From positions 1,054,001 to 1,118,000 of the forward strand of contig NZ_CP119145.1 of NCBI RefSeq assembly GCF_029167625.1: a stretch of 64,000 nt of DNA, read 5' to 3'. Shown here one piece after another: positions 23,389-54,014 of this stretch; the first letter of the stretch is position 1, and each line of letters opens with the position of its first letter. Source of the stretch: Streptomyces sp. AM 4-1-1. GTDB taxonomy: Bacteria; Actinomycetota; Actinomycetes; Streptomycetales; Streptomycetaceae. A program made the position numbers and the translations under genes. A model generated the notes under the pieces. That model saw nothing but the letters and a program-made list of their open reading frames with translations, was not told where the DNA came from and did not search any database.

Positions 23389-23550
23389 GGGCTGTCTTCG
23401 GCCCCTGACGGATCAGCGCACGGCACCGGACACGGTGCGTCGCGAGGCGGAGGCACGTCCGCGTACCGGAGTACCCGGACGCTTCCCGCAACGCGACGAG
23501 ACGCCGTGACGGTCGTCGTGCGCCCGCCCGGAATCGCTGGACAGCTCTTG
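23389..23550 (+). repeat. MITE-like structured repeat, copy A
   Basis: This begins GGGCTGTC, ends GGACAGCTC and aligns along its length with the element at 53852-54014. Shared blocks in order are GGATCAGCGY-CGGC, GGTGCRTCGC-AGGCGG, ACGTCCGCGTAC, TTCCC-CAACGC, GTCGTCG and GGACAGCTC. A central hairpin ACGTCCGCGTAC-CGGA-GTACCCGGACG (23455-23481) has base differences from copy C that keep the pairing. It fills most of the otherwise empty 23103-23733 gap, upstream of the glycosyltransferase operon. Confidence 0.7.
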
Positions 23551-23733
23551 GGGGGTGCCGCGTCGGCGAACGGCTCCTTGAGTCACGCCGCCGCGCGGCC
23601 CGCGACACCGGCTCACCCGGTCGGCAGGGGCGTCATGCCGTCATGACCGGGGTGGGCAGCCCCCTTTTCGCACCGGACATTCAGCCGGGCGGCCCGGGAA
23701 CGGACCGCCCGCCGGACGAGAGGGAAGAGAATC

Positions 23734-24603
23734 ATGAGTTCAGTTCTGCGCCCGGCCGTTCCGGGCCGGGATACGTCGCCGCTGCCGTCCCCTGCCGGGA
23801 CGACGGCCGCGTCGTCCTCGTCCGCCGCCCGAATACCGGCCGGCTACCGGCCGATCTCCTCCCATCTCGCGATAGCGCCCCCGGTCAGCGTGGTGATCCC
23901 CGCGATGAACGAGGCGGCGAACCTTCCCCATGTGTTCGGGTCCCTGCCCGGGTGGATTCATGAGGTCGTCCTGGTCGACGGGGCGTCCACCGACGACACC
24001 GTGCGGGTCGCCCGCGAGCTGTGGCCGGACATCGTGGTGGTCGAGCAGGCGGGCAAGGGCAAGGGCGACGCCCTCATCAGCGGGTTCGACGCCTGCACGG
24101 GCGACATCATCGTCATGGTCGACGCGGACGGCTCGGCGAACGGCGAGGAGATCGTCAGCTACGTCTCGGCCCTCGTCGGCGGCGCCGACTTCGCCAAGGG
24201 CTCCAGATTCGCCAACGGCGGTGGTACGGACGACATGACACCGGTCCGCAGACTCGGCAACCGCGTGCTGTGCGCGGTGGTCAACCGCAAGTTCGGGGCG
24301 CGCTACACCGACCTCTGCTACGGCTACAACGCCTTCTGGAAACACTGCCTGGACCGGATCTCCCTCGACTGCACCGGCTTCGAGATCGAGACGCTGATGA
24401 ACATCCGGGTCGTCAAGGCGGGGCTGCGGGTCCAGGAGGTACCCAGCCACGAGTACAACCGGATTCACGGCGTCAGCAATCTCAGCGCGGTGCGGGACGG
24501 CCTGCGGGTGCTCAAAGTGATCCTCCGGGAGAAGCGCGTCCGCCGCCCCGGCCGCCGCCCGGCCGCCGTACCCGTCGTCTCCGGCCAGGGGGACGCGTCG
24601 TGA
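23734..24603 (+). CDS. Family 2 glycosyltransferase
   Basis: The 289-residue protein has a disordered Ser/Ala/Pro N terminus of about 48 residues and then a GT-A fold. Landmarks are VSVVIPAMNEAANLP, the nucleotide-binding VLVDGASTDDT, the metal-binding DAD at 130-132 (IIVMVDADGSANGEEI) and YTDLCYGYNAFW. The ending EVPSHEYNRIHGVSNLSAVRDG matches polyprenol-phosphate-type or exopolysaccharide glycosyltransferases. It acts at the cytosolic face of the membrane on an activated sugar. It is the first gene of a three-gene operon and overlaps the next by 4 bp. Confidence 0.9.
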   Translation: MSSVLRPAVPGRDTSPLPSPAGTTAASSSSAARIPAGYRPISSHLAIAPPVSVVIPAMNEAANLPHVFGSLPGWIHEVVLVDGASTDDTVRVARELWPDIVVVEQAGKGKGDALISGFDACTGDIIVMVDADGSANGEEIVSYVSALVGGADFAKGSRFANGGGTDDMTPVRRLGNRVLCAVVNRKFGARYTDLCYGYNAFWKHCLDRISLDCTGFEIETLMNIRVVKAGLRVQEVPSHEYNRIHGVSNLSAVRDGLRVLKVILREKRVRRPGRRPAAVPVVSGQGDAS

Positions 24604-25685
24604 GTCCACGGGACTTCTCCGTGGTCATCTGCGTCCACACCGAGGACCGCTGGGACGACATCCTCGCGGCGGTCGCCTCGGTACGGGCCCAGTCGCTGCC
24701 CGCCAGGGAGACGCTGCTGGTGGTGGACCACAATCCGGCCCTGCTGGACCGGCTGGCCCAGAAGTACGAGAAGCCCGGGACGGACAAGGCGCACGGGGCG
24801 GGCGGGGCGGGCGAGGGATCGGCGTGGGTGCGCGTGCTCGCCAACGCGGGCCCCCGTGGGCTCTCGGCGGGCCGCAACACCGGGGTCGCCGCCGCCCGCG
24901 CCGAGATCGTCGCCTTCCTCGACGACGACGCCGTGGCCGAGCGTGACTGGCTGCGCCACTTCGACCGGGCGTACGACGACCCCCGGGTGATGGCCGTCGG
25001 TGGCCGTACCGTGCCCGCCTGGGCCTCCGGCCGGCGGCCCGTCTGGTTCCCCGAGGAGTTCGACTGGATCGTCGGCTGCACGTACAAGGGGCTGCCCCCG
25101 GGCAGGGTCCGGGTGCGCAATGTGCTCGGGGGCAACGCGTCCTTCCGGCGTACCGCGTTCGAGGTCACGGGCGGGTTCGCCACCGGCATCGGGCGGGGCG
25201 GCGGCAACCGGCCGCTGGGCGGCGAGGAGACCGAGCTGTGCGTCAGGCTGGCCAGGGCGCTGCCCCGGGCGGTGCTGCTGATCGACGACCGCGCGGTCGT
25301 CCACCACAGGGTGCCGGGGCCCCGCGAACGGTTCGGCTACTTCCGCTCCCGGGCCTACGCGGAAGGTCTCTCCAAGGCCCTGGTCACCCGAAGTGTCGGG
25401 GTGGGCAAGGGACTTGAGTCGGAACGCCGCTACACCACCCGGGTGCTGCCCGCCGGGGTGGTCCGTGGGGTGCGGGACGCGCTGCTCGGCCGGCCGGGGG
25501 GCGCGGGCCGGGCGGGCGCCATCGTGACCGGGGTGGCGGCGGCCGTGGGCGGCTATCTGCTGGGGAGCGTACGGGTCAGGAGCGGCCGTACGACGTTCTC
25601 CGTACCGCCGCCCGTCGCCCCCGTGGCACAGCGGCCCGGTCACCACGCCGGCCGCCCCGCCGGGCACGGTGGTGAACGGTGCTGA
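24600..25685 (+). CDS. Second family 2 glycosyltransferase
   Basis: The product has 361 residues, starting at GTG 24600, which overlaps the previous stop as GTGA. The GT-A motifs are FSVVICVHTEDRWDDI, NAGPRGLSAGRNTGVAAA, FLDDDAVAERDWL (the DxD region), and GGNASFRRTAFEVTGGF with the acceptor-site GGEETELCVRL. A C-terminal helix pair and a Pro/Arg-rich tail follow. This resembles mycofactocin- and exopolysaccharide-type glycosyltransferases. Donor and acceptor are unknown; the operon partner GT and the deacetylase suggest a surface glycan or glycolipid. Confidence 0.9.
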   Translation: MSPRDFSVVICVHTEDRWDDILAAVASVRAQSLPARETLLVVDHNPALLDRLAQKYEKPGTDKAHGAGGAGEGSAWVRVLANAGPRGLSAGRNTGVAAARAEIVAFLDDDAVAERDWLRHFDRAYDDPRVMAVGGRTVPAWASGRRPVWFPEEFDWIVGCTYKGLPPGRVRVRNVLGGNASFRRTAFEVTGGFATGIGRGGGNRPLGGEETELCVRLARALPRAVLLIDDRAVVHHRVPGPRERFGYFRSRAYAEGLSKALVTRSVGVGKGLESERRYTTRVLPAGVVRGVRDALLGRPGGAGRAGAIVTGVAAAVGGYLLGSVRVRSGRTTFSVPPPVAPVAQRPGHHAGRPAGHGGERC

Positions 25686-26494
25686 GCGAGGCGGCGGCGG
25701 ACCGGGCCGTGCCGATCCTGATGTACCACGCCGTCGCCCACCGCCCGGCCCCGGCGGTCCACCGCCTCTCGGTCTCGCCCGGGGCGTTCCGCGCCCAGAT
25801 GGCGGTGCTGGCGGAGCGTGGCCTGACCCCGCTCACCACGGCGGCGCTCGGCCGGGCCTGGCGGACCGGCGGGCCGCTGCCGCCCCGGCCGGTGCTGATC
25901 ACCTTCGACGACGGTTACGAGGGGGTGCACCGGTACGCGCTGCCGGTGCTCGCCGCCCACGGGTTCGCGGCCACCGTCTTCGTCACCACGGGCTGGCTGC
26001 GCGGTCCCTACGAGGAGGCGGGCGCGCCCGACACCATGCTGGACTGGCACCAGGTCCGCGAACTGGCCGCGGCGGGTGCGGAGATCGGCGGCCACAGCCA
26101 CACCCATCCGGAGCTGGACCAGCTGGACGACGGGCGGCTGCGGTCCGAGACCGTGCGGTGCCGGGAGATCATCGGCGCTGAACTGGGCGCGGCACCGGCC
26201 TCGTTCGCCCATCCGTACGGCTACTCCGACCGCCGGGTCCGGCGGGCCGTGCGGACCGCGGGCTTCGCCCAGTCCCTCGCCGTGGGCAACGCCCTGGCCC
26301 GGCGCGGGCAGGGACCGTACGCCCTGGAACGGGTCACGGTCCGGCGCGGCACCACCCCGCGGGAGTTCGACCGGATGATCACCGGCCGGCCGGCCGGCCG
26401 TGACTTCGCGGTGGACCGGGCGCTCACCAAGGGGTACGCCGTCGTACGGAGGACCCGTCGGGCGCTCCGGTCCGCCGCCGGGCCGGGGCGGTGA
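25679..26494 (+). CDS. Polysaccharide deacetylase (CE4)
   Basis: The 271-residue protein has the NodB motifs: TFDDGY at about 75-80 (catalytic Asp and metal Asp), HSHTHPEL with both metal histidines at about 139-143, and a motif-3 ASFAHPYGY. The metal triad is complete, so it should remove N-acetyl groups from sugars. No signal peptide is seen, so it may act on an intracellular lipid-linked sugar before export. It starts at GTG 25679 inside the previous gene (7-bp overlap), completing a coupled GT-GT-deacetylase operon. Confidence 0.9.
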   Translation: MLSEAAADRAVPILMYHAVAHRPAPAVHRLSVSPGAFRAQMAVLAERGLTPLTTAALGRAWRTGGPLPPRPVLITFDDGYEGVHRYALPVLAAHGFAATVFVTTGWLRGPYEEAGAPDTMLDWHQVRELAAAGAEIGGHSHTHPELDQLDDGRLRSETVRCREIIGAELGAAPASFAHPYGYSDRRVRRAVRTAGFAQSLAVGNALARRGQGPYALERVTVRRGTTPREFDRMITGRPAGRDFAVDRALTKGYAVVRRTRRALRSAAGPGR

Positions 26495-26579
26495 GCGGGA
26501 CCGGCCGGTGCGGTCGGCCCGGGGCGGGCGCCGGGCCCCGTGGCGAAACCGGGTGCGCGGGGTGTCCCCGTGCCGGATC

Positions 26580-27695
26580 ATGGACACCATGTCCGCCAAC
26601 CCCGAATCCGCCCTGCCGATCCGGCTCAACGTCGACGACAGTGATTCGCCTTCCGATGTCGTCGACGCGCTGTTCCTCGGCCGTTTCGCGACGGGTGAGC
26701 AGCCGTACTCGCACAGCACGTCGCTCGACCGGGTCAGATCCGCCGCGACACTGCTGCCGCCCGCCGCCAGGGTGCTCCGCGCCGCCCGGGACGACGACCG
26801 CAGCGCCACGCTCGCCGAGGGCGACGGCTGGACCCTGCTGATCTCGCGATGGAGCCGCGGCGCCGACGTCACGGTCACCGCGACCAGCGGAGAACTGGCG
26901 GAGCGGGTGCTCGGCGAAGCGACGGACGGCGCCAGGGACGAGCCGGAACCGCAGCCCGAGAACGTGCCGATGGGCTTCTGGTACGTCTCACCGCGCCGCG
27001 GCCCGCACCGCACCACCCGGCAGATCAGCGCCGGGACCTGGGACGAGGTCCGGGGCAACTACACGGCGCCGGTGGCGGAGGCCCTGGACCGGCTGATGAA
27101 GGTCACCCCCGACGACATCGCGGGCCGGCTGCTCCTGCTGCACGGCCCGCCGGGCACCGGGAAGACCTCCGCGCTGCGCACCCTCGCCAGGTCCTGGCGC
27201 GACTGGTGCCAGGTCGACTGCGTGCTGGACCCCGAACGCCTCTTCAACGACGTCGGCTATCTGATGGACATCGCGATCGGCGAGGACGACGGCACGTCGG
27301 GGGGCCGGTGGCGGCTGCTGCTCCTGGAGGACTGCGACGAGCTGATCCGGGGCGAGGCGAAGCACACGGCCGGCCAGGCCCTGTCCCGGCTGCTGAACCT
27401 CACGGACGGGCTGCTCGGGCAGGGACGGAACGTCCTGGTGGGGGTCACCACCAACGAGGACCTGGAACGGCTCCACCCCGCGGTGGTCAGGCCGGGCCGC
27501 TGTCTGGCCCGGATCGAGGTCGGCTCGCTGACCCGCCGGGAGGCCGTGTCCTGGCTGGGCGCGGAGGAGGGCGTCGGCCGGGAGGTGGGCAGGGAGGGAG
27601 CGACGCTCGCCGAGCTGTACGCGCTGCGCCGGGGCAGCGGGCCCGCGTCGGTCCCGAAGCAGGACTCGAACACGGACGCGGGCCTGTACCTCTGA
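26580..27695 (+). CDS. DUF5925 AAA-type ATPase
   Basis: The 371-residue protein has an N-terminal DUF5925 region (LPIRLNVDDSDSPSDVVDAL at residues 12-31, then RVLRAARDDDRSATLAEGDGWTL). A C-terminal AAA core has Walker A GPPGTGKT at 189-196, Walker B LLLLEDCDE at 247-254, a sensor-1-like VTTNED and an arginine in RPGRC. It is an intact ATPase of a Streptomyces-specific family without assigned role. ATG 26580 or ATG 26589 could be the start; neither has a strong ribosome binding site. It stands alone after the deacetylase operon (85-bp gap). Confidence 0.9.
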   Translation: MDTMSANPESALPIRLNVDDSDSPSDVVDALFLGRFATGEQPYSHSTSLDRVRSAATLLPPAARVLRAARDDDRSATLAEGDGWTLLISRWSRGADVTVTATSGELAERVLGEATDGARDEPEPQPENVPMGFWYVSPRRGPHRTTRQISAGTWDEVRGNYTAPVAEALDRLMKVTPDDIAGRLLLLHGPPGTGKTSALRTLARSWRDWCQVDCVLDPERLFNDVGYLMDIAIGEDDGTSGGRWRLLLLEDCDELIRGEAKHTAGQALSRLLNLTDGLLGQGRNVLVGVTTNEDLERLHPAVVRPGRCLARIEVGSLTRREAVSWLGAEEGVGREVGREGATLAELYALRRGSGPASVPKQDSNTDAGLYL

Positions 27696-27781
27696 CGCCC
27701 CGTCATGCAATCCCTCCCGCTTCCCCGGCTCCGACTCCCTGTTCCCCGTCGGCCCGGCCCCCGGTCCGGCCGATCACCCGC

Positions 27782-28159
27782 TCATCGCGGATAGACGGCC
27801 CGTACCGCGTCCTCGGCCAGGGACAGTGCCTCGGCCCGGGACAGGCCGAGGCGTCTGGCCTGCTCCGCGAAGTCCTGTGCGGCGGCGGCCGCCTTGCGGT
27901 CGGCGGCGTCGCCCGCCGCCGCGACGAACGTGCCGTTGCGGCCGCGGGTCTCGATCACCCCGTCGGCCTCCAGCGCCCGGTACGCCTTGGCGACGGTGTT
28001 GGCGGCGAGCCCGAGGTCCTCGGCCAGGCCACGTACGGTCGGGAGCCGGTGGCCGACGGGCAGAGCACCTGACCTGGCCTGTTCGGAGATCTGCGTGCGC
28101 AGTTGTTCGTACGGGGCGGTGGCGGTGTCCGGGTCGAGGACGATCTTGAAAGTCACCAT
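27782..28159 (-). CDS. GntR family regulator, YtrA subfamily
   Basis: The 125-residue protein consists of a GntR winged helix (PPYEQLRTQI-like APYEQLRTQISEQARSG, LPTVRGLAEDLGLAANTV, residues about 18-62, then VIETRGRNGTFVA). It has a short C-terminal helical tail, the YtrA layout without a large effector domain. Such proteins usually repress a linked ABC transporter, but none is adjacent here. ATG 28159 follows GGGGGA at good spacing; the frame to 28174 would start inside the ribosome binding site. The segment carrying this site is duplicated in tandem. Confidence 0.9.
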   Translation of the reverse strand: MVTFKIVLDPDTATAPYEQLRTQISEQARSGALPVGHRLPTVRGLAEDLGLAANTVAKAYRALEADGVIETRGRNGTFVAAAGDAADRKAAAAAQDFAEQARRLGLSRAEALSLAEDAVRAVYPR

Positions 28160-28211
28160 CCGATTCTCCCCCACCGCGAAGAAATCCGATTCTCCCCCAC
28201 CGCGAAGAAAA
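28160..28211 (-). repeat. 26-bp tandem duplication covering the gntR ribosome binding site
   Basis: Positions 28160-28185 and 28186-28211 are the same 26-bp unit (CCGATTCTCCCCCACCGCGA at its left) with a single difference at the last base. On the minus strand each copy contains GCGGTGGGGGAGAATCGG. Only the proximal copy is followed by ATG, so the gene has a second, non-productive Shine-Dalgarno sequence immediately upstream. Confidence 0.9.
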
Positions 28212-28442
28212 TGGCAGGCGGCCGGGGCGCGGGGGCACGTACCGTCCTGCGCGTGACCGTGATCGTGCGTGACTCACGGTCCACCGACGCCGAGGACCGG
28301 GCTGCGGCGGGCCGCGCCGCCGTGCACGGTGACGACACCCGGGGCGGTGGTGCCCGGCCTGGCCGATGGACGCCGACAAACGGCCCGGTGCTCGCCGTCG
28401 ACAAATGGTTCGGTTACGGAATCTGCGCCACGGAGGTACGTC

Positions 28443-28937
28443 ATGTCCATGAACTCGTCCGAGACCGCCCTGGTGGTCGCCCTCGTCAAGGCGGGCCACA
28501 CCAAGATCCGTTACCCGGCGGAGGTGGTCCGCGACGACGGGGTCCGGGTGACGGTGCGCGCTCCGTGGGCCGCGCCCGGGGTCCGCGACTTCGGCTTCGT
28601 ACGGTTCGAGCCGGGCGATGTGTTCACCGAACACTACTGGCGCGACCGGTGGTTCGCGGTGAAGGAGGTCAGGACGGGGACCGGCGGGCTGAAGGGCTGG
28701 TACTGCGACGTGACCCGCCCGGCCGTGCTGAGCGACGGTGAGCTGCTGGTGGAGGACCTGGACCTGGATCTGTGGGTGTCGGCGGACGGGGCGACCGTAC
28801 TCCGGCTGGACGAGGACGAGTTCGCGGAGAGCGGCCTCACCGAGCGCGATCCGGCGGCGGCCCTGGCGGCCCGCCGGGCGTTGGACGAACTGGAACTCCT
28901 GGCCCGTACCGAGGGGTTGACCGGTCTGCTGACCTGA
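28443..28937 (+). CDS. DUF402 domain protein (FomD/Ntdp-like)
   Basis: The 164-residue product has the DUF402 barrel: TKIRYPAEVVRDDGVRV, FEPGDVFTEHYWRDRWFAV, KGWYCDVTRP and the acidic DLDLDLWV, with the metal/catalytic acidic residues in LDEDEF. Characterised relatives hydrolyse nucleotide-linked phosphonates or nucleoside di- and triphosphates, so a nucleotide phosphatase activity is plausible. GGAGG at 28432-28436 precedes ATG 28443. A strong terminator follows at 28952. Confidence 0.88.
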   Translation: MSMNSSETALVVALVKAGHTKIRYPAEVVRDDGVRVTVRAPWAAPGVRDFGFVRFEPGDVFTEHYWRDRWFAVKEVRTGTGGLKGWYCDVTRPAVLSDGELLVEDLDLDLWVSADGATVLRLDEDEFAESGLTERDPAAALAARRALDELELLARTEGLTGLLT

Positions 28938-28951
28938 CGCCCGCCCGGACC

Positions 28952-28983
28952 GTGACGGCCGCCGTTTCTCCGGCGGCCGTCAC
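28952..28983 (+). terminator. Perfect 13-bp terminator hairpin
   Basis: GTGACGGCCGCCG (28952-28964) and CGGCGGCCGTCAC (28971-28983) pair perfectly around a 6-nt loop, 15 nt after the DUF402 stop. Confidence 0.85.
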
Positions 28984-29082
28984 CCCTGCCTGGGCGCGGC
29001 CCCTCTTCTCCGGCGGGAGACCCCGGACCGGCCGCTCCTCCGGCCGGTGGTGACGGCCGATCTTTAACCGGCGCTGAGCGGT

Positions 29083-29103
29083 TCCTTAAGCGCGCCCTAA
29101 GGA
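29083..29103. promoter_or_regulatory. Inverted repeat in the promoter region of the small membrane-protein gene
   Basis: TCCTTA (29083-29088) and TAAGGA (29098-29103) are separated by 9 bp within a relatively AT-rich stretch about 140 bp before the small gene. It may be an operator or part of the promoter. The rest of the 302-bp gap 28938-29239 holds the terminator and nothing else recognised. Confidence 0.35.
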
Positions 29104-29239
29104 TCGCCCGTGACCGCCCTCGGCCGTCGTGTCCGGGCGCGGTCCGGGCTACCTTTCTGATCGCCGGGCGGGGCAGGCGCCCACCACCCCTCCCCCGCCC
29201 GGTTCCATGCCCGCGTCGCCGTCGAAGGAGATCGCCGCC

Positions 29240-29548: not shown

Positions 29549-29557
29549 CCCCGGGAC

Positions 29558-29826
29558 CACGCACCGCCGTCCCCGGCCGGACCCACGCACCACCGCCCCC
29601 GGTCGGCCAGACCCACATACCACCGTCCCGGGGCGGCCGGACCCACGCACCGCCGTCCCCGTTCCGACCAGGCGCGCCACCGCCCCCGGCCGGCCAGACC
29701 CACACACCACCGCCCCCGGCCGGCCGGACCCACGCGCCGCCACCCTGGGCCAGCCGGTCCCACGCGCCACCCCACCGCCCTCGTTCCGCCCGGACGCACC
29801 ACTGCCTCCGGCCGGCCGATGACAGC
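29558..29826. repeat. Degenerate 30-bp minisatellite, about nine units
   Basis: Units of about 30 bp beginning ACGCACCRCCGCCCCCGG and ending CCGGCCGGACCC repeat roughly nine times between the small membrane-protein gene and the imuB-like gene. Some units carry a few bases more or less (for example around 29670 and 29765). The open frames through it give ten-residue Pro/Arg/Thr or Gly/Trp repeats on either strand, which look like by-products of the repeat. The rest of the 29549-29904 gap shows no gene. Confidence 0.85.
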
Positions 29827-29904
29827 ACGGCGCCCACCGGGCACATGTCTCCGCCCTCGTCGGGCCCGGGGGCGAAATAGCGGTCCGGCGATCCGGCCGG
29901 TGGC

Positions 29905-34711: not shown

Positions 34712-35851
34712 ATGACTTTCGTCGACGAGGTGAAGAACGCCGTCACGCCCAGGGCCGCGCTGCTCGTCATCGGCACGCTGGCGTTGCAGCTTCTGTTCAT
34801 CACGTCCTACGTGGGGGCGCTGCACAGGCCGGTCCCCACGGACGTCGCCTTCGGGGTGGTGGCTCCTCCGCAGGTGTCCCAGAAGCTGATCACCCAGCTC
34901 AAGGACCTCCCCGGCGGGCCGCTGGACCCGCGCCGGGTCTCCGACGCGAAGGCGGCCCGCGAGAAGGTCCTGAACCGCGACCTCGACGGCGTGCTGATCG
35001 TCGACCCCACCGGGAAGACCGACACGGTGCTGGTCGCCTCCGGGGGCGGCACCGTGCTGGCGAACACCCTGACCAAGATCGTCACCAAGGCCGACGAGGC
35101 CCAGGGGCGCACGGTCAGGTCCGTGGACGTGGCACCGGCCTCCAGTGACGACTTCAACGGGCTCTCGTCCTTCTACCTCGTCGTGGGCTGGTGCGTCGGC
35201 GGCTACCTCTGCGCCTCGATCCTGGCGATCAGCGCGGGCGCCCGCGCCGCCAACCGCCGGCGCGCGCTGATCCGGGTCGCCGTCATGGCGCTGTACTCGA
35301 TCGCGGGCGGCATCGGCGGTGCGATCGTCATCGGACCGATCCTCGGCGCGTTGCCGGGCAGCGTGTGGGGGATGGCGGGACTGGGTGCGCTGATCGTCTT
35401 CGGGGTGGGCATGATCACGCTCGCGCTGGAAGCGCTCACCGGGATCGTCGGCATCGGTCTGGCCGTCCTGATCATCGTGGTCGCGGGCAACCCGAGCGCG
35501 GGCGGCGCCTTCCCGCTGCCGATGCTGCCGGACTTCTGGCGGGCGATCGGACCGGCCCTGCCACCGGGCGCGGGCACCTGGGCGGCCCGCTCCATCGCGT
35601 ACTTCAGGGGCAACGCGCTCACCCAGCCACTGCTGGTCCTCTCCGCCTGGGCGGTCGTCGGCACGGCCCTCACCCTGCTGCTCTCCCTGCGCCGCGCCCC
35701 GGGCCAGGCGGACGGCATGGCACTCGAAGGCCCCGGGAACGGCATGGGCGGCGGCGGTACGGGGGGCAGTGGTACGGGGGACGGCGATACGGGGGACGGC
35801 GGCGGAAGCCGTACCGGAGGCGGCTCCACCCGGCGGACGTCGGGAGCCTGA
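34712..35851 (+). CDS. Multi-pass membrane protein, ABC-2/YhgE-Pip-like (DUF3533-type)
   Basis: The 379-residue protein has one N-terminal helix (ALLVIGTLALQLLFITSYVG), a large extracytoplasmic domain of about 130 residues, then five or six helices from SSFYLVVGWCVGGYLCASIL onward. It ends in a low-complexity Gly/Thr/Asp tail. The layout, single helix, exported domain, then a helical bundle, is that of YhgE/Pip and ABC-2-like permeases without an own ATPase. It is divergent from dnaE2 and unrelated to it in function as far as I can see. The Gly-rich tail (GGTGGSGTGDGDTGDG) is repeat-derived. Role unknown; no ATPase partner is adjacent. Confidence 0.8.
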   Translation: MTFVDEVKNAVTPRAALLVIGTLALQLLFITSYVGALHRPVPTDVAFGVVAPPQVSQKLITQLKDLPGGPLDPRRVSDAKAAREKVLNRDLDGVLIVDPTGKTDTVLVASGGGTVLANTLTKIVTKADEAQGRTVRSVDVAPASSDDFNGLSSFYLVVGWCVGGYLCASILAISAGARAANRRRALIRVAVMALYSIAGGIGGAIVIGPILGALPGSVWGMAGLGALIVFGVGMITLALEALTGIVGIGLAVLIIVVAGNPSAGGAFPLPMLPDFWRAIGPALPPGAGTWAARSIAYFRGNALTQPLLVLSAWAVVGTALTLLLSLRRAPGQADGMALEGPGNGMGGGGTGGSGTGDGDTGDGGGSRTGGGSTRRTSGA

Positions 35852-35978
35852 CCCGGGCGGAGCGAGCACCCGACCCGTCCCGTCGTTCCGGACAGCGGGA
35901 CAGCACCGGGAGCCGGAAGCCGGAAACGGCACCATTGCAGTGTCCCGCGGCGCGACTTTACTCTCATCACCTCGGTAA

Positions 35979-36055
35979 GAGCTGTCCCGTGGTCCCTGAC
36001 GGGCGGGCGACGACAGCCGCGGCACCTGGCGACGACGTGCGCGACAGGCGTCTCC
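35979..36055 (-). repeat. MITE-like structured repeat, partial copy B
   Basis: The sequence from AGAGCTGTCCCGTG through GGGCGACGACAGC to CGGCACCTGGCGACGACGTG aligns, on the plus strand here, with the reverse complement of the right end of the element at 53852-54014. Similarity runs for roughly 65 bp and then stops, so this is a one-ended remnant. It lies in the leader or promoter region of the SLATT-type gene (start 36133). Just downstream, GAACGG and CCGTTC at about 36070-36091 form a small hairpin. Confidence 0.65.
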
Positions 36056-36132: not shown

Positions 36133-37059
36133 ATGACCGCGATTCCCGGACCGCTCCGGAGCATGGTCTTCCGGAACGCCGATCTTCCGGCACTCTTCCA
36201 CCACACGGACGCCGTCGCCGTCGCACGTCAACGCGAGAGCGTGAACACCACCAGGGGGCAGCTGGTGCTCCTCGTGCTCGGAGCCGTGCCCGCGGCCCTC
36301 CCCTGGCACTGGCGGGTCGCGGGATCGGTCCAACTCCTCGACGCGCTGGGAGTGCTGGCCTATGCCGGCGTCCTGATCGCGACCTACCTCTCGGCCCGCC
36401 GTCAGGCGAAGTCGCACTGGCAGCTGAACCGCTCCGCGGCGGAGTTCATCAAGTCGGTCTGCTGGCGTTACGCGGTCCACGGCTCCCCCTTCGACACCGG
36501 CACCCAGCACCCGGAGGCGGTGTTCGCCAACCGGCTGGAGGAGGGGCTCCAGGAGTTACGGAAGGTCGGCTGGGTGGACCCCCGGGAGCGGCAGGAGGAT
36601 TCCGGCGGTCTGATCACGGACGCGATGCGGGAACTGCGGGCCAAGGCGTTCACCGTGCGCAAGGAGACCTATGTCCGGGACCGGCTGATCGATCAGCGAG
36701 GCTGGTACCGCAGGCGCCAGGAGGTCTCCCGGCGTGCCACGTTCCTCTGGTCGACCGCCATCGCCGTGCTGACCGGGCTCGCCCTCGTCCTCGGTCTGCT
36801 CCGGACGTTCTCGGTGACCGGCTCCTTCGCCCTGACCGGCGTGCTGTCCGCCGCCGCGGCGGCCTGTCTCGCCTGGTACGAGATGCGCCGCCACCATCCG
36901 CTGATCTCCGCGCACTCCCTGGTCGAGAAGGAACTGGAAGCGCTGCAGGTCGCGATGGAGACCACACTGACCGAGCGGCACTGGCCGGTCGCGGTGTTCG
37001 AGACCGAGCGGATCGTGTCGCCGCAGCACACCGACTGGCTTGCCCGGCACAAGATGTGA
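36133..37059 (+). CDS. DUF4231/SLATT-type four-helix membrane protein
   Basis: The 308-residue protein has two separated pairs of transmembrane helices, at about 43-59 and 68-88, and at about 204-223 and 231-249. A cytosolic helical region (WQLNRSAAEFIKSVCWRYAVHG, in parts) lies between them, and a C-terminal coil rich in Glu, Leu and Arg follows (HSLVEKELEALQVAMETTL). This arrangement matches DUF4231/SLATT 2-TM modules, here as a tandem. SLATT proteins have been proposed to be pore-forming effectors controlled by SLOG or SMODS nucleotide sensors. A SLOG-like gene lies convergently 25 bp away. ATG 36133 starts at a GGGGGCGA stretch. Confidence 0.8.
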   Translation: MTAIPGPLRSMVFRNADLPALFHHTDAVAVARQRESVNTTRGQLVLLVLGAVPAALPWHWRVAGSVQLLDALGVLAYAGVLIATYLSARRQAKSHWQLNRSAAEFIKSVCWRYAVHGSPFDTGTQHPEAVFANRLEEGLQELRKVGWVDPRERQEDSGGLITDAMRELRAKAFTVRKETYVRDRLIDQRGWYRRRQEVSRRATFLWSTAIAVLTGLALVLGLLRTFSVTGSFALTGVLSAAAAACLAWYEMRRHHPLISAHSLVEKELEALQVAMETTLTERHWPVAVFETERIVSPQHTDWLARHKM

Positions 37060-44867: not shown

Positions 44868-44874
44868 TTGACCC

Positions 44875-48286: not shown

Positions 48287-48439
48287 GCGGGGCGCTCGCC
48301 GACCGGGACCGGCCGGGCGCCACCGCTCTCACCGAAGGCCGGAATCCGGAGGCCGGAAACCGGCGCCGACGCCCGGAGGGCACGGGACAGGGGGCCGGGC
48401 CAGGGGCGTGGGACCACACCAAACACCGGGGCCGCCGGG

Positions 48440-49651
48440 CTACCGGAAGGCGTCCAGACCGGTGAGCGCCTTGCCCAGCACCAACTGGTGCATCTCCACG
48501 GTGCCCTCGTAGGTGAGCACCGATTCCAGGTTCGTCGCGTGCCGCATCACCGGATATTCGAGCGAGATCCCGTTGGCCCCGAGGATCGTGCGCGCGGTCC
48601 GGCAGATCTCGATGGCCTCCCGCACGTTGTTCAGCTTGCCGAAACTGACCTGCTCGGGCCGGAGGGTGCCCGCGTCCATCCGCCGGCCCAGATGGTGGGC
48701 GAGCAGGATTCCCTTGTGCAGTTCGAGCGCCATGTCGGCGAGCTTGGCCTGGGTGAGCTGGAAGCCGCCGATCGGCCTGCCGAACTGCTCCCGGGTCCTC
48801 GCGTAGTCGACGGCCGCGTCGAAACTGGCGCGCGCCGCCCCCATGGCGCCCCACACGATGCCGTACCGCGCGTGGCTGAGACAGCCGAGCGGACCGCGCA
48901 GTCCGACGGCGCCGGGCAGCACGGCGTCGGCGGGCAGCCGCACCCCGTCCAGGACCAGTTCACTGGTGACCGAGGCGCGCAGCGACCACTTGTGCTTGAT
49001 CTCGGGCGCGGAGAAACCGGCGGTGTCGGTCGGCACCACGAAGCCCCGGATACCGCCCGGGGTCCCGGCCGGGTCGGTCTGCGCCCAGACGACGGCGACC
49101 CCGGCGACCGATCCGTTGGTGATCCACATCTTGCGGCCGGTGAGCACCCAGTCGTCGCCGTCGCGCTCGGCGAACGTCCGCATGCCGGCCGGGTCCGATC
49201 CGTGGTCCGGCTCGGTGAGTCCGAAGCAGCCGATGATCTCCCCCGCCGCCATGCCGGGCAGCCAGCGCCGCTTCTGCTCCTCGGTGCCGAAGCGGTGGAT
49301 GGCGTACATGGCGAGGGAGCCCTGGACGGAGACGAGGGAGCGGATGCCGGAGTCGGCCGCTTCCAGTTCCAGGCAGACCAGCCCGTACTGGACGGCGGTC
49401 GCGCCCGCGCAGCCGTACCCGTCGAGGGACATGCCGAGGGCGCCGAGAGAGCCCAGCTCGCGGGACAGCTCGCGGATGCCGGGCAGTTCGCCCTTCTCGT
49501 ACCACTCGGCGATGTGCGGCAGGACCCGGTCGGTGGACCAGGCCCGGACCGTGTCCCGGATCGCGAGGTCGTCGGGGCCGAGCAGATCGTCGACGCCGAT
49601 CGGGTCACGCGGGTCGAAGGGCGGGAGCTTCGAGGACGGAGTTGCTGACAA
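48440..49651 (-). CDS. Acyl-CoA dehydrogenase, glutaryl-CoA dehydrogenase-like
   Basis: The 403-residue enzyme has the ACAD fold: GCFGLTEPDHGSDPAGMRT, VLTGRKMWITNGSVAG and the C-terminal ILGANGISLEYPVMRHATNL with the catalytic glutamate in SVLTYEGTVEMHQLVLG. The YEGT placement and sequence are those of glutaryl-CoA dehydrogenase, which converts glutaryl-CoA to crotonyl-CoA in lysine/tryptophan catabolism. The start is TTG 49651, giving LSATPSSKLPPFDP, with GGAGG seven bases upstream; the frame to 49702 would add 17 filler residues. No partner gene adjacent. Confidence 0.9.
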   Translation of the reverse strand: MSATPSSKLPPFDPRDPIGVDDLLGPDDLAIRDTVRAWSTDRVLPHIAEWYEKGELPGIRELSRELGSLGALGMSLDGYGCAGATAVQYGLVCLELEAADSGIRSLVSVQGSLAMYAIHRFGTEEQKRRWLPGMAAGEIIGCFGLTEPDHGSDPAGMRTFAERDGDDWVLTGRKMWITNGSVAGVAVVWAQTDPAGTPGGIRGFVVPTDTAGFSAPEIKHKWSLRASVTSELVLDGVRLPADAVLPGAVGLRGPLGCLSHARYGIVWGAMGAARASFDAAVDYARTREQFGRPIGGFQLTQAKLADMALELHKGILLAHHLGRRMDAGTLRPEQVSFGKLNNVREAIEICRTARTILGANGISLEYPVMRHATNLESVLTYEGTVEMHQLVLGKALTGLDAFR

Positions 49652-49724
49652 GAGGGTGCCTCCGGCGGCTCGGGCGCTGCTGAACGGGCGGGGGTCGGTC
49701 AAGGCGTCGCGCTGACGTTACGGT

Positions 49725-51488
49725 TCAGTGCGCCGCCCGTCCAGATCCGGACGCCTCGACGGGGTGGCGGCCCGCGGGCGACGCGGGGCGCGGGCGCGGC
49801 AGGGCCTCGGTAGCCGGCTCGCGCACCGCACGGGCCCGCGCCGGACGCGGGATGCCCACCGCCTCCCGAAGAACCGCCCGCGCCGTCTCCGGCGTTCCCG
49901 TCCGCCGGGGCGATTCCGTCGCGGCGGGTCCGTGGCCGGCCGGTGGCGGGCACTCCATCGTCCGCGGCAGTCGCAGCGCGGCCAGCGCGCCGAGCAGCAG
50001 CAGGCCGGCGCTGACCAGCAGCGTGACGTGCAGGCCGTGGACGAAGGCGTGACGCGCGGTGCCGCGCAGCGCCGCGCCCAGCGGGCCGCCCAGCCGGGCC
50101 GCCTCCTGGTACGCCTCGCCGAGCGAGTGCGAGGCCGCCGCACCCGCGTCGGCGGGGACGCCCTGCTGGGAGAGCCGGGCGAGCCCGGGGACGTAGGCGG
50201 CGTTCATGACACTGCCGAGCAGCGCGATGCCCAGCCCGGCACCGAGCTGGTACGAGGTCTCGCCGATGGCCGCCGCGCCGCCCGCCCGGTCGGCGGGCGC
50301 CTCGCTGAGCATCGACTCGTACGCGCCGAAGAGCGTGGACTGCAATCCGAAGCCGAGCAGCACGAACCCGCAGGTGAGCAGCACAGGCCGGTCGTGCTGT
50401 CCCATCAGGGTCAGCAGCAGTACCGCCGCCGCGGTGAGCACGAAGCCCCAGCCGACCATCCGGCGCGGGCCGGTGCGGCGCAGGGTGTACGAGCCCGTGG
50501 CGCCCGCCGCCATGGCGGCGAAGGTCAGGGGCAGCAGCCGCAGTCCGGTCTCCAGTGGGCTGAGGTCCAGGACGAGCTGGAGGTACTGGACGGCGATCAG
50601 TTCCAGACCGACCAGGGCGAGCATGGCGAGGACGACACAGCCCACGGCCGTGGAGAAGGCGGGCCGGGCGAACATCCCGATGTCGATCAGCGGCCGCGTG
50701 CGGCGCCGCTGCCGTCGTACGAACAGCGCGAGCAGGGCGAGCCCGGCCGACAGCGGTCCGAGGGTGGCCGGGCCCAGTGGTTCCTCGCCCGCCCCCAGCC
50801 GTTTCACCCCGTAGACCAGGCCGAGGATTCCCGCTGCCGCCGTCAGCGCGCCCCACACGTCCCAGGGTCCGTCGTCGCCACCCCTGGACTCCGGGAGCAG
50901 GAGCCGGCCGACCGGCAGGATCAGTGCCATCAGCGGAACGTTGATCAGGAAGACCGAGCCCCACCAGAAGTGCTCGACGAGGAAGCCCCCGATCACCGGC
51001 CCGGTGGCGGCGCCGACCGCGGCGACCGCGGTCCACACCCCGATGGCCGTGGCCCGTTCGCGCCGGTCGGGGAAGACCTGGCGGAGGATCGACAGCGTCG
51101 CGGGCATGATCATGGCGCCGCCGACACCGAGGAGGGCGCGGGCCGCGATCAGCACTCCGGGGCTGCCCGCGGTGGCCGCGAGCGCGGACGCGACACCGAA
51201 GAGGGCGTATCCGGTGAGCAGCACACGCCGCCGGCCGATCCGGTCGCCGAGGGTCCCGAAGAGGATCAGCAGCGAGGCGCAGACGAGCGGGTAGGCGTCG
51301 ACGATCCACAGCAGTCCGACGGCGCTGGGCCGCAGGTCCTCGGTGAGGGCCGGCACGGCGACGTGGAGCACGGTCGCGTCGAGCGCGACGAGCAGCAGAC
51401 TGAGACAGAGGACGACCAGGACGACCCAGCGATCGCCACCACCGGTGGCCGATGCCGGCCGGTGCCGGCCCGTGGTCGTCCCGGACAT
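49725..51488 (-). CDS. MFS transporter, DHA2 (14-TMS) drug exporter type
   Basis: The 587-residue protein has fourteen hydrophobic helices. Motif A-like sequence is seen in FGTLGDRIGRRRVLLTGYALF and motif C-like in AAVGAATGPVIGGFLVEHFWW. A charged, Pro/Arg-rich C-terminal tail of about 75 residues follows. These are the features of H+-coupled multidrug exporters of the EmrB/QacA group. ATG 51488 follows GGGAGG at ideal spacing; the longer frame to 51623 is rejected. Substrate unknown. A 441-bp AT-rich divergent region separates it from the PAP2 gene. Confidence 0.93.
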   Translation of the reverse strand: MSGTTTGRHRPASATGGGDRWVVLVVLCLSLLLVALDATVLHVAVPALTEDLRPSAVGLLWIVDAYPLVCASLLILFGTLGDRIGRRRVLLTGYALFGVASALAATAGSPGVLIAARALLGVGGAMIMPATLSILRQVFPDRRERATAIGVWTAVAAVGAATGPVIGGFLVEHFWWGSVFLINVPLMALILPVGRLLLPESRGGDDGPWDVWGALTAAAGILGLVYGVKRLGAGEEPLGPATLGPLSAGLALLALFVRRQRRRTRPLIDIGMFARPAFSTAVGCVVLAMLALVGLELIAVQYLQLVLDLSPLETGLRLLPLTFAAMAAGATGSYTLRRTGPRRMVGWGFVLTAAAVLLLTLMGQHDRPVLLTCGFVLLGFGLQSTLFGAYESMLSEAPADRAGGAAAIGETSYQLGAGLGIALLGSVMNAAYVPGLARLSQQGVPADAGAAASHSLGEAYQEAARLGGPLGAALRGTARHAFVHGLHVTLLVSAGLLLLGALAALRLPRTMECPPPAGHGPAATESPRRTGTPETARAVLREAVGIPRPARARAVREPATEALPRPRPASPAGRHPVEASGSGRAAH

Positions 51489-51929
51489 GCGCGTACCTCC
51501 CAAAGGTCCCTCACGGGTCCCTCGCGTCGGCAGGCCGCCCGGGAGCCGGGGCCTCCGGCGTCCCTCGGGCCCGGCATCGACGGGCGAGTGAGCCGTCAGC
51601 GTACGCGAGTTCCATCGGGGCACGCGTGGCCGACCTCATACCTCATCGATCACGCGGTGTGGCGTACGCCACGCCGAGGGGCGGCCGGGAGTCCATGTAC
51701 CGCCCACAACGATCGACAGCGATATCCATATCGATATTACTTCGCACCATTACGTTCATACTCAAACATTTTTACGGGCGCGACACGAAGGCGATTGGCC
51801 GCAAGGCCGTCCGGATTCCCTCGACGCCTTGGAATTACGGGCTTTTCGTGGTCCGGCCCACATCACATCGTCATCACAAACCGGCCGGATGGGCCAGGTC
51901 TCACACTCACTCGCTGTAACGTCGATTGT
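51489..51929. other. 441-bp divergent region with an AT-rich island
   Basis: The segment from about 51719 to 51775 is unusually AT-rich for this genome (for example ATATCGATATTACTTCGC and TTCATACTCAAACATTTTTA). It carries the nested palindromes at 51720-51737. Further right, TAACGTCGATTGT immediately before 51930 may be the -10 region of a leaderless PAP2 transcript. No gene is evident. Confidence 0.45.
51720..51737. promoter_or_regulatory. Nested AT-rich palindromes
   Basis: CGATATCCATATCG (51720-51733) is an inverted repeat with a 2-bp spacer and overlaps ATATCGATAT (51728-51737), a perfect 10-bp palindrome. They sit in an AT-rich island between the MFS and PAP2 promoters and are good candidates for a regulator site. 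Confidence 0.5.
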
Positions 51930-53057
51930 GTGCGTACCGACATCTTTGCCCGCCTGGACCGGGAGCCGGAACCGCCGAAGATAGAGATCCCGCGGATGAG
52001 CCGTCACCGCATCGCTCTCTTCGGCGGGACCTTGGCGTTCTATCTCGCCATCGTCGTGGCCGTGCTGGTCTCTTCCTGGCTGGTGACCCTGGACTGGAAG
52101 GTCATGCTCTTCCGGCCGTACCAGCAGTGGCCCGAACTCCACGCCTTCCTCGATTACTACATCGTGCTCGGCCAGCGTGGCCCCACGGCCGTGATGGTCG
52201 CCTGCTGGCTCGGCTGGCGCTCCTGGCGGCAGCACACACTGCGGCCGCTGCTCACCCTGGGCACCTCGCTGCTGCTGCTCAACATGACGGTGGGCGCGGT
52301 CAAACTCGGTCTGGGCCGCCTCGGTCCGCACTACGCCACCCAGATCGGCTCGGCCGAGCTCTTCGCCGGCGGCGATATATTTCCCTCGGGTCACACCGCG
52401 AACGCCGTGGTGACCTGGGGAATTCTCGCGTATCTGGCCACCACGCCACGGGCCAGACGCTATCTGTCGGCCACGTCGGCCGTCGTCTCTCTCGGCGTGG
52501 GACTCACGACCGTCTACCTCGGGACGCACTGGCTCAGCGATGTGCTGCTCGGCTGGGCGGCCGGACTGCTGATCCTGCTGGGGCTGCCCTGGTGCGAACC
52601 CCTGATCACCCGCGCCGAGGAGACGATCTTCGCCGTGCGCGCGTGGTGGCGGGCGCGCGGGAGTCGGCGGGTGGCCGTCCCGGTCGCGGCCGACGAGCCG
52701 CACGTGGTGTGCACCTCACGGCGGGACGGCTCGGCCGTCGCTCTCAGCACCGCCCCGGGCGTACGGACCGCACCAGCCCCGGCGTCCGGTTCCGGTACGG
52801 ACATCGGCGCCGAGACCCGTACCGACACCCGCGACGGGAGCCCGGCACGCGAGCCGGTCGCCGCGGCGAGCGCCCGCTTCACCCCGGCCGCTGCCCCTGC
52901 TCCGGGCTCCGGGACCCGGGCACGGGCGCACTCGGTGCGTTCGGAGCGGATGCCCGTCACTCCGGTCGGCAGCCGTCGGCCGCCGCCGCACACGGACCGG
53001 GCCCCCCGGGGCGGCACGGCCGCACCTGCTCCGGCCCGCCCGGTGACGGGCGGCTGA
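51930..53057 (+). CDS. PAP2-family membrane phosphatase
   Basis: The 375-residue protein has five or six helices and the three PAP2 motifs: KLGLGRLGP (residues 125-133), FPSGHTANAV with the catalytic PSGH at 152-155, and TTVYLGTHWLSD with H200 and D204. It should remove phosphate from a lipid or isoprenoid phosphate (for example undecaprenyl-PP or PA) outside or within the membrane. A disordered Ala/Pro/Arg-rich tail of about 130 residues follows. Start GTG 51930 (VRTDIFARLDREPEPPK) has no Shine-Dalgarno and may be leaderless; ATG 51996 is an alternative. Confidence 0.9.
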   Translation: MRTDIFARLDREPEPPKIEIPRMSRHRIALFGGTLAFYLAIVVAVLVSSWLVTLDWKVMLFRPYQQWPELHAFLDYYIVLGQRGPTAVMVACWLGWRSWRQHTLRPLLTLGTSLLLLNMTVGAVKLGLGRLGPHYATQIGSAELFAGGDIFPSGHTANAVVTWGILAYLATTPRARRYLSATSAVVSLGVGLTTVYLGTHWLSDVLLGWAAGLLILLGLPWCEPLITRAEETIFAVRAWWRARGSRRVAVPVAADEPHVVCTSRRDGSAVALSTAPGVRTAPAPASGSGTDIGAETRTDTRDGSPAREPVAAASARFTPAAAPAPGSGTRARAHSVRSERMPVTPVGSRRPPPHTDRAPRGGTAAPAPARPVTGG

Positions 53058-53100
53058 GCGGCCGGGAAGGCCGGGGGCGGTACGCACAAGCGCCCCCGCC

Positions 53101-53137
53101 GGGTGAAGGCTCCGACCAGAGGTCGGGGCCTTCACCC
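53101..53137. terminator. Bidirectional terminator hairpin
   Basis: GGGTGAAGGC-T-CCGACC and GGTCGG-G-GCCTTCACCC form a stem of 17 bp (one G-T wobble) with loop AGA between the convergent PAP2 and I78 genes, whose stops are at 53057 and 53140. Confidence 0.85.
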
Positions 53138-53139
53138 GT

Positions 53140-53355
53140 TCATCCCACCCAGCAGCGGGTCACGGCGCCCGCCTCCACCTCGAAGTTGATCCTGCCGAAC
53201 CGGAACTCCATGGTGATGACCGTGCCCGGCGGCAGCGCTCTGACCGTGGTCCAGCCGCGCTCCCGGGCCCGCGACTCAGCGGTCGCGGCGTCGAGGCCGA
53301 CATACGGCTCCGGAGCGTCGTCCGGCTGGGCGGGAGGGTTCGGTACGGATGTCAT
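53140..53355 (-). CDS. I78-family peptidase inhibitor-like protein
   Basis: The 71-residue protein has the I78 shape: YVGLDAATAESRARERGW followed by TVRALPPGTVITMEFRFG, RINFEVEAGAVTRCWVG at the end. Short proteins with this pG-x-VT-x-(D/E)-x-R-x-x-R-x-N-x-x-V-x-x-G pattern are putative serine-protease inhibitors. No signal peptide is seen, so an internal role is possible. ATG 53355 is the only likely start. It lies next to the terminator and convergent with the PAP2 gene. Confidence 0.8.
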   Translation of the reverse strand: MTSVPNPPAQPDDAPEPYVGLDAATAESRARERGWTTVRALPPGTVITMEFRFGRINFEVEAGAVTRCWVG

Positions 53356-53851
53356 GCCCCCACCGTAGGGGGCCGCGCGCGGAGACGGAAACGGTCCCGG
53401 CCGGGGCGGTCACGTCACCCTCACATCCGCCACCGGTCACGCTTGTGTCACAAGATCACGACACACGTTCGCATCAGTCGACTTCACCCGAACGAGAAGT
53501 GCGCGACCGGTCGCCCGGTAATTGAACAACCCTGAAGAATCCGGGGCGTGAAGGCCAGAAGAAAGCGCCGGAATACCCCGGCGAGAAGAGAATCCTTTTC
53601 TCGTACCGGGAGCGTCACACGAATGGCATGACACCGGGCGGAATTCCGGACCTCTTATGTCAACCTTATCTTTGGCTTATGGGTCCATGAAGGCGGCCCG
53701 GGTGCCCCGGTCCGTCGGAGCACACCGGCCGGTACGGGACCGGGTCGATCCGCTCCCGGCTCCCGGAGCCCGGAAGGGGCGGACCGGGCCCGGGCCACCC
53801 GGTCCGCGACGGCCGGCCCGGCGGTCCGATCACCTCGAAGTCGCGGCCAAA
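53356..53851. other. Non-coding stretch with stacked hairpins
   Basis: This part of the 796-bp gap contains CTTGTG-T-CACAAG (53442-53454), CGCCGG/CCGGCG (53566-53583) immediately followed by CGAGAA/TTCTCG (53582-53603), and an AT-rich promoter-like segment ATGTCAACCTTATCTTTGGC near 53657-53676. No convincing gene is present; open frames have no ribosome binding site and Arg/Pro-rich content. The gap then continues with repeat copy C, and about 140 bp of featureless GC-rich DNA lies before 54152. Confidence 0.4.
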
Positions 53852-54014
53852 GGGCTGTCCCGCGATCCGTGGTGGATCAGCGTGCGGCGTCGGATGCGGT
53901 GCATCGCAAGGCGGAAGAACGTCCGCGTACTGGATGTACGGGGACGTTCCCACAACGCCGCGAGGTGCCGTAGCTGTCGTCGCACGCCCACCAGGGATCA
54001 CGGGACAGCTCCAA
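53852..54014 (+). repeat. MITE-like structured repeat, full copy C
   Basis: This is the best preserved copy. The left end GGGCTGTCCCGCGATCC (53852-53868) and the right end GGATCACGGGACAGCTCC (to about 54012) are terminal inverted repeats. Inside lies a long hairpin AACGTCC-G-CGTAC-TGGAT-GTACG-G-GGACGTT (53918-53948). Copy A (23389-23550) aligns across the whole length; copy B (35979-36055) matches the right end inverted. There is no coding capacity. Confidence 0.75.

What the first reader, a model, noticed from the sequence alone, without database searches (positions are those of the whole stretch)
23389..54014. Three copies of a structured MITE-like element
Copies at 23389-23550, 35979-36055 (partial, opposite orientation) and 53852-54014 share terminal inverted repeats related to GCTGTCCCGYGATCC. 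The two full copies share a central hairpin whose arms differ in sequence but keep pairing (ACGTCCGCGTAC/GTACCCGGACG versus AACGTCCGCGTAC/GTACGGGGACGTT). All are intergenic and no transposase is in the window. Either a non-autonomous transposon family or a dispersed structured RNA or DNA element is implied, and pairing conservation argues for a structural role.
Basis: seen in the sequence. Interest (0 to 1): 0.75.

Follow-up and report, generated by a model that had tools for sequence, protein, structure and literature searches.

The report
Hairpin-core transposons with changing ends
The repeats are copies of a common gene-less jumping element whose folded middle is conserved across several bacterial groups, although its ends differ greatly and match transposons of more than one kind.

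Summary
Two full copies (161 and 162 bp) and a half copy lie between predicted genes; the host genome has at least 40 such places (only 40 of 96 candidates were scored). They are mobile: one plasmid copy faces empty sites in four other plasmids, with TA duplicated. Elements with the same outer end and IS5-type transposases exist elsewhere in the genus.

The surprise comes from comparison. The middle (about 110 bp) is shared by elements whose ends form 21 groups at 3 or fewer mismatches in 18. Most ends form one IS5-like continuum, so gradual change explains much; but others match an IS630-type element, so at least one exchange between transposase kinds is needed. The core is in 102 of 121 Streptomyces genomes and sporadic elsewhere. 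It folds into one long hairpin with strong covariation. Its wobbles are G.T on one strand (164 against 11 A.C), so a single strand, RNA or ssDNA, is the selected form.

Best reading: a non-autonomous element moved in trans by TA-targeting DDE transposases, with a strand-specific folded core. Insertion and fold are shown; the core's job, and how ends change, are inferred.

The parts
23388..23548 (+). Copy A of the element, 161 bp, diverged
   Evidence: flanks TA (23386-23387) and TG (23549-23550)
53851..54012 (+). Copy B of the element, 162 bp (commonest length)
   Evidence: flanks AA (53849-53850) and AA (54013-54014)
35978..36034 (-). Half copy (right half only, reversed), outer end AGAGCTGTCCCG after TA
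   Evidence: 56 bp, 86%
53851..53868 (+). Left terminal inverted repeat of copy B, AGGGCTGTCCCGCGATCC
   Evidence: AGGGCTGTCCCG is also the end of the elements found, where it was fixed by the pattern
53995..54012 (+). Right terminal inverted repeat of copy B
53878..53990 (+). Conserved structured core of copy B
   Evidence: 91 bits (copy B was in the model)
23414..23526 (+). Conserved structured core of copy A
   Evidence: 48.9 bits, E 5e-9
53904..53913 (+). TCGCAAGGCG, 5' half of the core's signature internal loop
   Evidence: fixed by the search pattern
53953..53964 (+). CAACGCNGCGAG, 3' half of the core's signature internal loop
   Evidence: fixed by the search pattern

Best explanation
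The repeats are members of a superfamily of non-autonomous, TA-targeted transposable elements of about 160 bp. Each has terminal inverted repeats that a DDE transposase made elsewhere recognises in trans (inferred from shared ends). They insert at TA, mostly inside CTAG, duplicating TA (shown at one site for the window's type). The first base, G or A, recreates TAG or TAA, so insertion into a CTAG stop codon does little harm (shown by position). Between the repeats lies a core whose '+' strand folds into one long imperfect hairpin with a conserved AAG/N internal loop, a purine mismatch and G.T wobbles; selection keeps this fold on one strand (shown). The core has outlived large changes of the ends, including at least one change between IS5-like and IS630-like ends (shown by comparison). 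Inferred: the folded strand, as RNA or single-stranded DNA, serves the element itself rather than the neighbouring gene; ends change partly by gradual divergence, partly by recombination inside the core and perhaps copying of one hairpin arm onto the other. My split on the active form: RNA 0.5, ssDNA 0.35, double-stranded DNA 0.15.
For: At least 40 places in the genome, common boundaries in 31 aligned copies. Plasmid NBC_00857 has GCG-TA-element-TA-GGTGGG; NBC_01547 and S. rutgersensis plasmids align there as a clean gap (GCGTAGGTGGG), and SAP1 and an S. albidoflavus plasmid read GTAGGTGGG at the same place by eye. Ends: 7 of 30 loci found with TAAGGGCTGTCCCG (fixed by the pattern) have a second end matching 14-20 of 22; one is only 156 bp, the others 0.8-1.5 kb; ORFs of four were scanned and hit DDE_Tnp_1, DDE_Tnp_4 and HTH_Tnp_4. 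GTGCTGTGACCGG ends are on a DDE_3 (IS630-type) element in the same genome as core elements with those ends; GGCCGTGTCTTCAAA on a DUF4096 (IS5-type) element of a congeneric genome. Of 136 distinct core elements 71 show clear ends; 61 of 71 lie in CTA...TAG and 61 of 71 are 158-175 bp. In 36 of 71 an end forms the stop codon of a flanking gene. Covariation on 40 sequences: 85.3% of cells paired, 290 double-change cells against 110.8 shuffled, slid controls 31-47%. Wobble in the core stem: G.T 160, A.C 17; 164 and 11 with one element per distinct first 10-mer; apical hairpins 156 and 42. '+' strand predicted more stable in 67 of 71 (RNA) and 69 of 71 (DNA).
Against: Ends are a continuum: 21 groups at up to 3 mismatches in 18, but 8 at up to 4, one of them holding 50 of 71, so many differences may be gradual, not exchanges. 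No transcription data; no promoter search was made. In Rathayibacter all 14 gene-abutting copies have the '+' strand antisense to that gene, so read-through mRNA carries the other strand. Orientation to genes is even in copies with clear ends (20 and 19), and 15 against 22 copies by replication direction (hand count, origin assumed) decides nothing. One covariation measure is weak (29 pairs with double change, 26.8 shuffled, reached in 29 of 500). The terminal repeats also lean to G.T: 13 and 7 (bases 1-10), 9 and 2 (bases 11-18) with one per 10-mer; 28 and 8, 17 and 7 in all 71. No capture of new ends was caught: the two cores beside an insertion sequence (L057, L201) are complete elements. 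No autonomous element with the window's ends was found in the window's genome. Four of 30 listed plasmid matches overlap an annotated gene, so copies are not always intergenic. Pattern bases never vary by construction.
Confidence: 0.7

Rival explanations
1. One ordinary MITE lineage that followed its slowly diverging transposases; ends changed gradually, and the palindrome is kept by mutation (template switching between the arms), not by selection on a fold.
For: 50 of 71 ends chain together at up to 4 mismatches in 18; near-perfect arms; arms in Rathayibacter run into host coding sequence, as arm copying would give.
Against: Template switching makes perfect pairs and treats both strands alike; core G.T outnumbers A.C 164 to 11 at fixed places; IS630-like ends match a transposase of another Pfam family.
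Confidence: 0.15
2. A host-useful 3'-end hairpin (terminator, insulator or mRNA stabiliser) that spreads because insertion after stop codons is beneficial.
For: 0 of 136 inside genes predicted by my caller (many loci are short); 36 of 71 form a gene's stop codon; all 14 gene-abutting Rathayibacter copies in one orientation (two-sided p 2.4e-4 for the 13 of genome G141); an orthologous copy keeps pairing through four double changes.
Against: Copies with clear ends are in either orientation (20 and 19); the Rathayibacter mRNA would carry the strand with A.C mismatches; the NBC_00857 copy lies where its empty relatives have an annotated terminal-protein gene; 4 of 30 listed plasmid matches overlap genes.
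Confidence: 0.15
3. A REP/BIME-type element moved as single-stranded DNA by a Y1 (RAYT) transposase.
For: Strand-specific imperfect hairpin; adjacent inverted pairs in Allofranklinella.
Against: No Y1_Tnp match in 7 of 12 genomes that carry the element, the window's included; TA duplication and transposon-like ends.
Confidence: 0.04
4. The core is a double-stranded protein-binding site (direct GTGC motifs), and the one-strand wobble is a by-product of these direct repeats.
For: 50 of 136 have GTGC on both sides at the same place.
Against: At the same pair G.T, T.G, C-G and G-C all occur with pairing kept, and the varied apical hairpins show the same bias.
Confidence: 0.1

Closest known systems
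MITEs of the IS630/Tc1-mariner and IS5 superfamilies (RUP, Nezha and others recalled, not tested)
   Same: Short, no transposase gene, terminal inverted repeats, TA duplication, many copies, transposase-bearing elements with the same ends
   Different: A structured middle conserved more widely than the ends and found with ends of more than one transposase kind
MRSC-65-2 and the other 'mobile/repeat sequence candidates' of PMC11109978 (passages seen; supplements not seen)
   Same: Long covarying stem, dozens of copies per genome, diverse phyla, thought selfish; the authors leave RNA or DNA open
   Different: Its repeat UYCCGG is on the '+' strand of only 16 of our 136. That this element is among the 250 candidates counted there cannot be excluded
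REP/BIME with RAYT transposases
   Same: Imperfect hairpin, strand-specific, mostly intergenic
   Different: TA duplication and transposon-like ends; no Y1_Tnp in 7 of 12 genomes
ERIC and enterobacterial RU elements (recalled; RU seen in one listing)
   Same: Small mobile intergenic repeats likened to MITEs
   Different: Sequences not compared by any search

Membership tests
MITE | Short, without a transposase gene | tested here: met
   61 of 71 are 158-175 bp, range 147-215
MITE | Terminal inverted repeats at sharp boundaries | tested here: met
MITE | Target-site duplication against empty sites | tested here: met
   TA; one occupied and four empty plasmid sites, two by clean alignment and two by eye
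MITE | Transposase-bearing element with the same ends | tested here: met
   in other genomes of the genus; none found in the window's genome
MITE | Movement by that transposase | not testable with these tools
   needs an experiment
IS630-derived (window type) | Window-type ends carried by a DDE_3 element | tested here: not met
   the four scanned elements with the window's outer end hit DDE_Tnp_1/DDE_Tnp_4; DDE_3 fits another end type (L075)
IS5-derived (window type) | Window-type ends on an element with an IS5-superfamily transposase | tested here: met
   L335, L344, L346, L348; second ends match 14-18 of 22
REP/BIME (RAYT) | Y1 transposase in the genome | tested here: not met
   present in 5 of 12, absent from 7
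Any Rfam 15 family | Score at or above gathering | tested here: not met
   window none; 16 loci by E-value, only sub-threshold matches
MRSC-65-2 | Repeated UYCCGG | tested here: inconclusive
   motif in 16 of 136 on the + strand; the published model was not available

The most novel reading that the evidence does not exclude
A transposase-agnostic selfish nucleic acid: one ancient, strand-specifically folded core (RNA or ssDNA) that persists across phyla by taking on the ends of whatever TA-targeting transposon is active, through recombination in the core and copying of one hairpin arm onto the other, so that the ends are disposable and the fold is the replicator.
Probability: 0.32. Interest if true: 0.9.

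Novelty: new variant of a known kind. Interest (0 to 1): 0.7.

Why it matters
Bacterial MITEs are usually taken for decaying deletion derivatives of one transposon. Here the middle outlives the ends, under selection for a one-strand fold, across genera and phyla. This makes it testable what a gene-less element gains from structure, and accounts for a repeat present in most Streptomyces genomes examined, a group important for antibiotics.

Tried and rejected
Core inside transposase-bearing elements: nhmmer of the core against 59 transposase loci gave two hits, L057 and L201, both complete elements beside an insertion sequence. RAYT dependence rejected. Replication bias: counted by hand from then on 37 of the 40 places, origin assumed mid-chromosome, 15 with and 22 against; no conclusion. 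A first empty-site attempt shows absence in two species beside what looks like a tRNA gene, without an exact junction; plasmid queries 65, 66 and 68 gave no usable empty site. Rfam sub-threshold matches (mir-1397, mir-5429, DUF3268, mir-128) are taken as long-hairpin noise; the DUF3268 model is multi-branched. Papers: searches listed none that I recognise as this element (open-access library, listings and a few passages; the string CGCAAGGCGGAG is in 0 papers). Promoters, ssi/sso and attC likeness were not tested.

Rows dropped: 65 of 136 elements had no clear ends, whose search required TA followed by G or A on both sides (without that rule, gave the same kind of ends); some are decayed, cut or nested, and the Rathayibacter ones lack common ends. 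For alignment A1, elements with G or C runs in the left arm and L057 were left out, 44 representatives were chosen, and 40 used (four omitted, three of them with long inserts).
Full report
WHAT IS IN THE WINDOW. Copy A is 23388-23548, copy B 53851-54012, and a half copy 35978-36034. By my gene caller A lies between divergent genes 22293-23087 (-) and 23890-24603 (+), B between converging genes ending at 53057 and 54152, the half copy between 34712-35851 (+) and 36163-37059 (+). Copy B has AA on both sides, copy A TA and TG. No Rfam family reaches its threshold in the window.

THE FAMILY IN THE HOST GENOME. The window is part of a 7.47-Mb genome. Its genus is Streptomyces by inference: G016, of the same genus, has a contig of the same length as a Streptomyces echinatus contig that came in as L161. 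One search finds 40 places, a lower bound, as 40 of 96 candidates were scored. Thirty copies plus copy A share ends, CTA|AGGGCTGTCCCGYRATCC ... GGATYRCGGGACAGCCCT|TAG, often mutated at the flanking TA. The type is on 45 of 72,556 plasmid records, all Streptomyces, and on none of 50,697 phage records at E 1e-5. Of the 30 plasmid rows listed, 4 overlap an annotated gene.

IT MOVES. Linear plasmid NBC_00857 carries a copy flanked by TA and TA. NBC_01547 and S. rutgersensis plasmids show the same site with a clean gap and a single TA; SAP1 of S. avermitilis and an S. albidoflavus plasmid read the same GTAGGTGGG by eye. This is one base-exact insertion. In NBC_01547 the site is inside an annotated terminal-protein gene. 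A pattern for the window's outer end that excludes the element's own continuation found 36 places in 27 of 246 genomes of the genus, against one control match. Of 30 loci fetched, 7 have a second end matching 14-20 of 22 (L326 at 156 bp; L329, L330, L335, L344, L346, L348 at 0.8-1.5 kb). ORFs of L335, L344, L346 and L348 hit DDE_Tnp_1, DDE_Tnp_4 and HTH_Tnp_4, IS5-superfamily transposases. None was found in the host genome.

THE SAME CORE WITH OTHER ENDS. With copy B as query, 12 of 31 genomes matched (own included), several only over positions 35-144. Of 20 regions fetched, one (L050) is the window's type; in the others the middle continues with other ends. A scan with TCGCAAGGCGN{26,50}CAACGCNGCGAG stopped at its limit with 119 stretches: 82 Streptomyces by title, the rest Kitasatospora, Nocardioides, Rathayibacter, Microbacterium, Pseudonocardia, Glycomyces and other Actinomycetota, Delftia, Acidovorax and Allofranklinella (Burkholderiales, recalled), and MAGs labelled Acidimicrobiales, Deltaproteobacteria, Nannocystineae and Vicinamibacteria. 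One IMG/VR contig has it. Ten of these genomes, chosen because they hold the pattern, gave 2 to 49 model matches each. The model hit 102 of 121 genomes of the genus, and 13 of 246 genomes drawn from the phylum, 5 of them of the window's genus. So the core is nearly everywhere in Streptomyces and sporadic elsewhere.

ENDS. Of 136 distinct elements, 71 have clear ends; 61 of 71 lie in CTA...TAG, and 162 bp is commonest (24 of 71). They start with 38 distinct 10-mers, some one base apart. Grouped by first 18 bases they make 21 groups at up to 3 mismatches but 8 at up to 4, one of them with 50 elements: an IS5-like continuum plus separate sets. Partners differ in kind. In G012, elements ending GTGCTGTGACCGGAAAGG share the genome with a DDE_3 (IS630-type) element with nearly the same ends. 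Elements ending GGCCGTGTCTTCAAA match a DUF4096 IS5-type element of a congeneric genome. The window type matches DDE_Tnp_4 elements. The host genome has a second kind, L364, with IS630-like ends. So at least one change between IS5-like and IS630-like ends is needed; how many more is open. In Allofranklinella two cores lie head to head between ends GAGCGTGTTATGCAC; Delftia and Acidovorax elements have similar ends and a second hairpin that the model does not hit.

THE FOLD. Forty representatives under 80% identical were aligned. With 36 pairs, 85.3% of cells pair and 290 cells carry double changes (110.8 in shuffles, none of 500 as high); sliding the partner by 1-3 columns drops pairing to 31-47%. 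The number of pairs with a double change is less telling, 29 against 26.8. Seven invariant pairs are fixed by the pattern and count for nothing. The key control is the kind of wobble. If a palindrome merely decays, G.T and A.C should arise equally. In the core stem G.T outnumbers A.C 160 to 17 on the 40, 615 to 61 on all 136 over positions -2 to -24 (summed), and 164 to 11 with one element per 10-mer; in the terminal repeats it is 13 to 7 and 9 to 2, a milder lean. Apical hairpins (124 distinct) show 156 to 42. By eye, a purine mismatch beside TCGC/GCGA and facing GA steps also suit the '+' strand. One strand is selected to fold; energies agree but cannot tell RNA from ssDNA.

WHERE THEY SIT. 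None of 136 is inside a gene of my caller. In 36 of 71 the element's end makes the stop codon of a flanking gene, 20 at the left and 19 at the right end. A first base G or A restores TAG or TAA.

RATHAYIBACTER. Fifteen cores in genome G141 and one in a second species, L198, have no common ends. Fourteen abut a gene (13 in G141, one in L198; the two others are outer members of tandem pairs). In all 14 the right end faces the stop codon of an antisense gene, 12-29 bases from the core; in 11 the stop begins within the 26 positions examined, and in L272, L278 and others the paired stem enters coding DNA. The left arm thus mirrors the gene's own 3' end (325 Watson-Crick, 35 G.T, 9 A.C, 47 other of 416, all 16 cores). 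At one orthologous place (L274, L198) four pairs changed on both sides and stayed paired. Either pairing is selected, or one arm is copied onto the other; the latter could also renew ends, an inference. A Streptomyces gossypii element, L091, joins the left half of one family (as L163) to the right half of the window's family: recombination within the core.

INTERPRETATION. Shown: insertion with TA duplication, transposase-bearing elements with the same ends, more than one transposase kind among ends, a conserved one-strand fold, insertion at gene ends. Inferred: movement in trans, the core's role in the element's own cycle, the way ends change. Against a role in neighbouring mRNA: even orientation, and in Rathayibacter the mRNA has the unfavoured strand. 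Against RNA in general: no transcript evidence. RNA and ssDNA stay open, RNA slightly ahead.

PRIOR KNOWLEDGE. PMC11109978 (passages seen) counts 250 mobile/repeat candidates from 50 genomes, S. avermitilis included, and details MRSC-65-2, a long covarying stem with over 20,000 members. Its UYCCGG repeat is in 16 of our 136, so it is probably another element, but the supplement was not read and this element may be listed there. PMC2864571 (passages) showed nothing like it. PMC2170065 (passages) supports TA duplication by IS630-type elements and cites the CTAG preference of IS630.

Noticed in passing
L091 (Streptomyces gossypii), with L163 and L089: Chimeric element: left half of one end type, right half of the window's type, joined within the conserved core.
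   Followed up: partly
L270-L278 (genome G141, Rathayibacter) and L198: Cores without common terminal repeats; all 14 that abut a gene are antisense to it at its stop codon, with gene-specific stems.
   Followed up: partly
L233, L241, L251 (Allofranklinella); L232, L242, L252 (Delftia): Longer elements with two hairpins between one pair of ends; in Allofranklinella both hairpins match the core model, in inverted orientation.
   Followed up: partly
L047, L097, L100, L124 and others: Extra small hairpin of the form GGGGGCACCTCCC...GGGGGAGC inserted in the stem of several Streptomyces elements; perhaps a second, smaller repeat family.
   Followed up: no
L060, L065, L070, L074, L076, L078, L079 (genome of the window): Seven alike DDE_3 (IS630-type) elements of 1131 bp, three within 150 kb of an end of contig C1 and two on contig C2.
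   Followed up: no
G138 (Acidimicrobiales MAG) and G128: Many copies with equal model scores, which suggests recent bursts of amplification; not measured.
   Followed up: no
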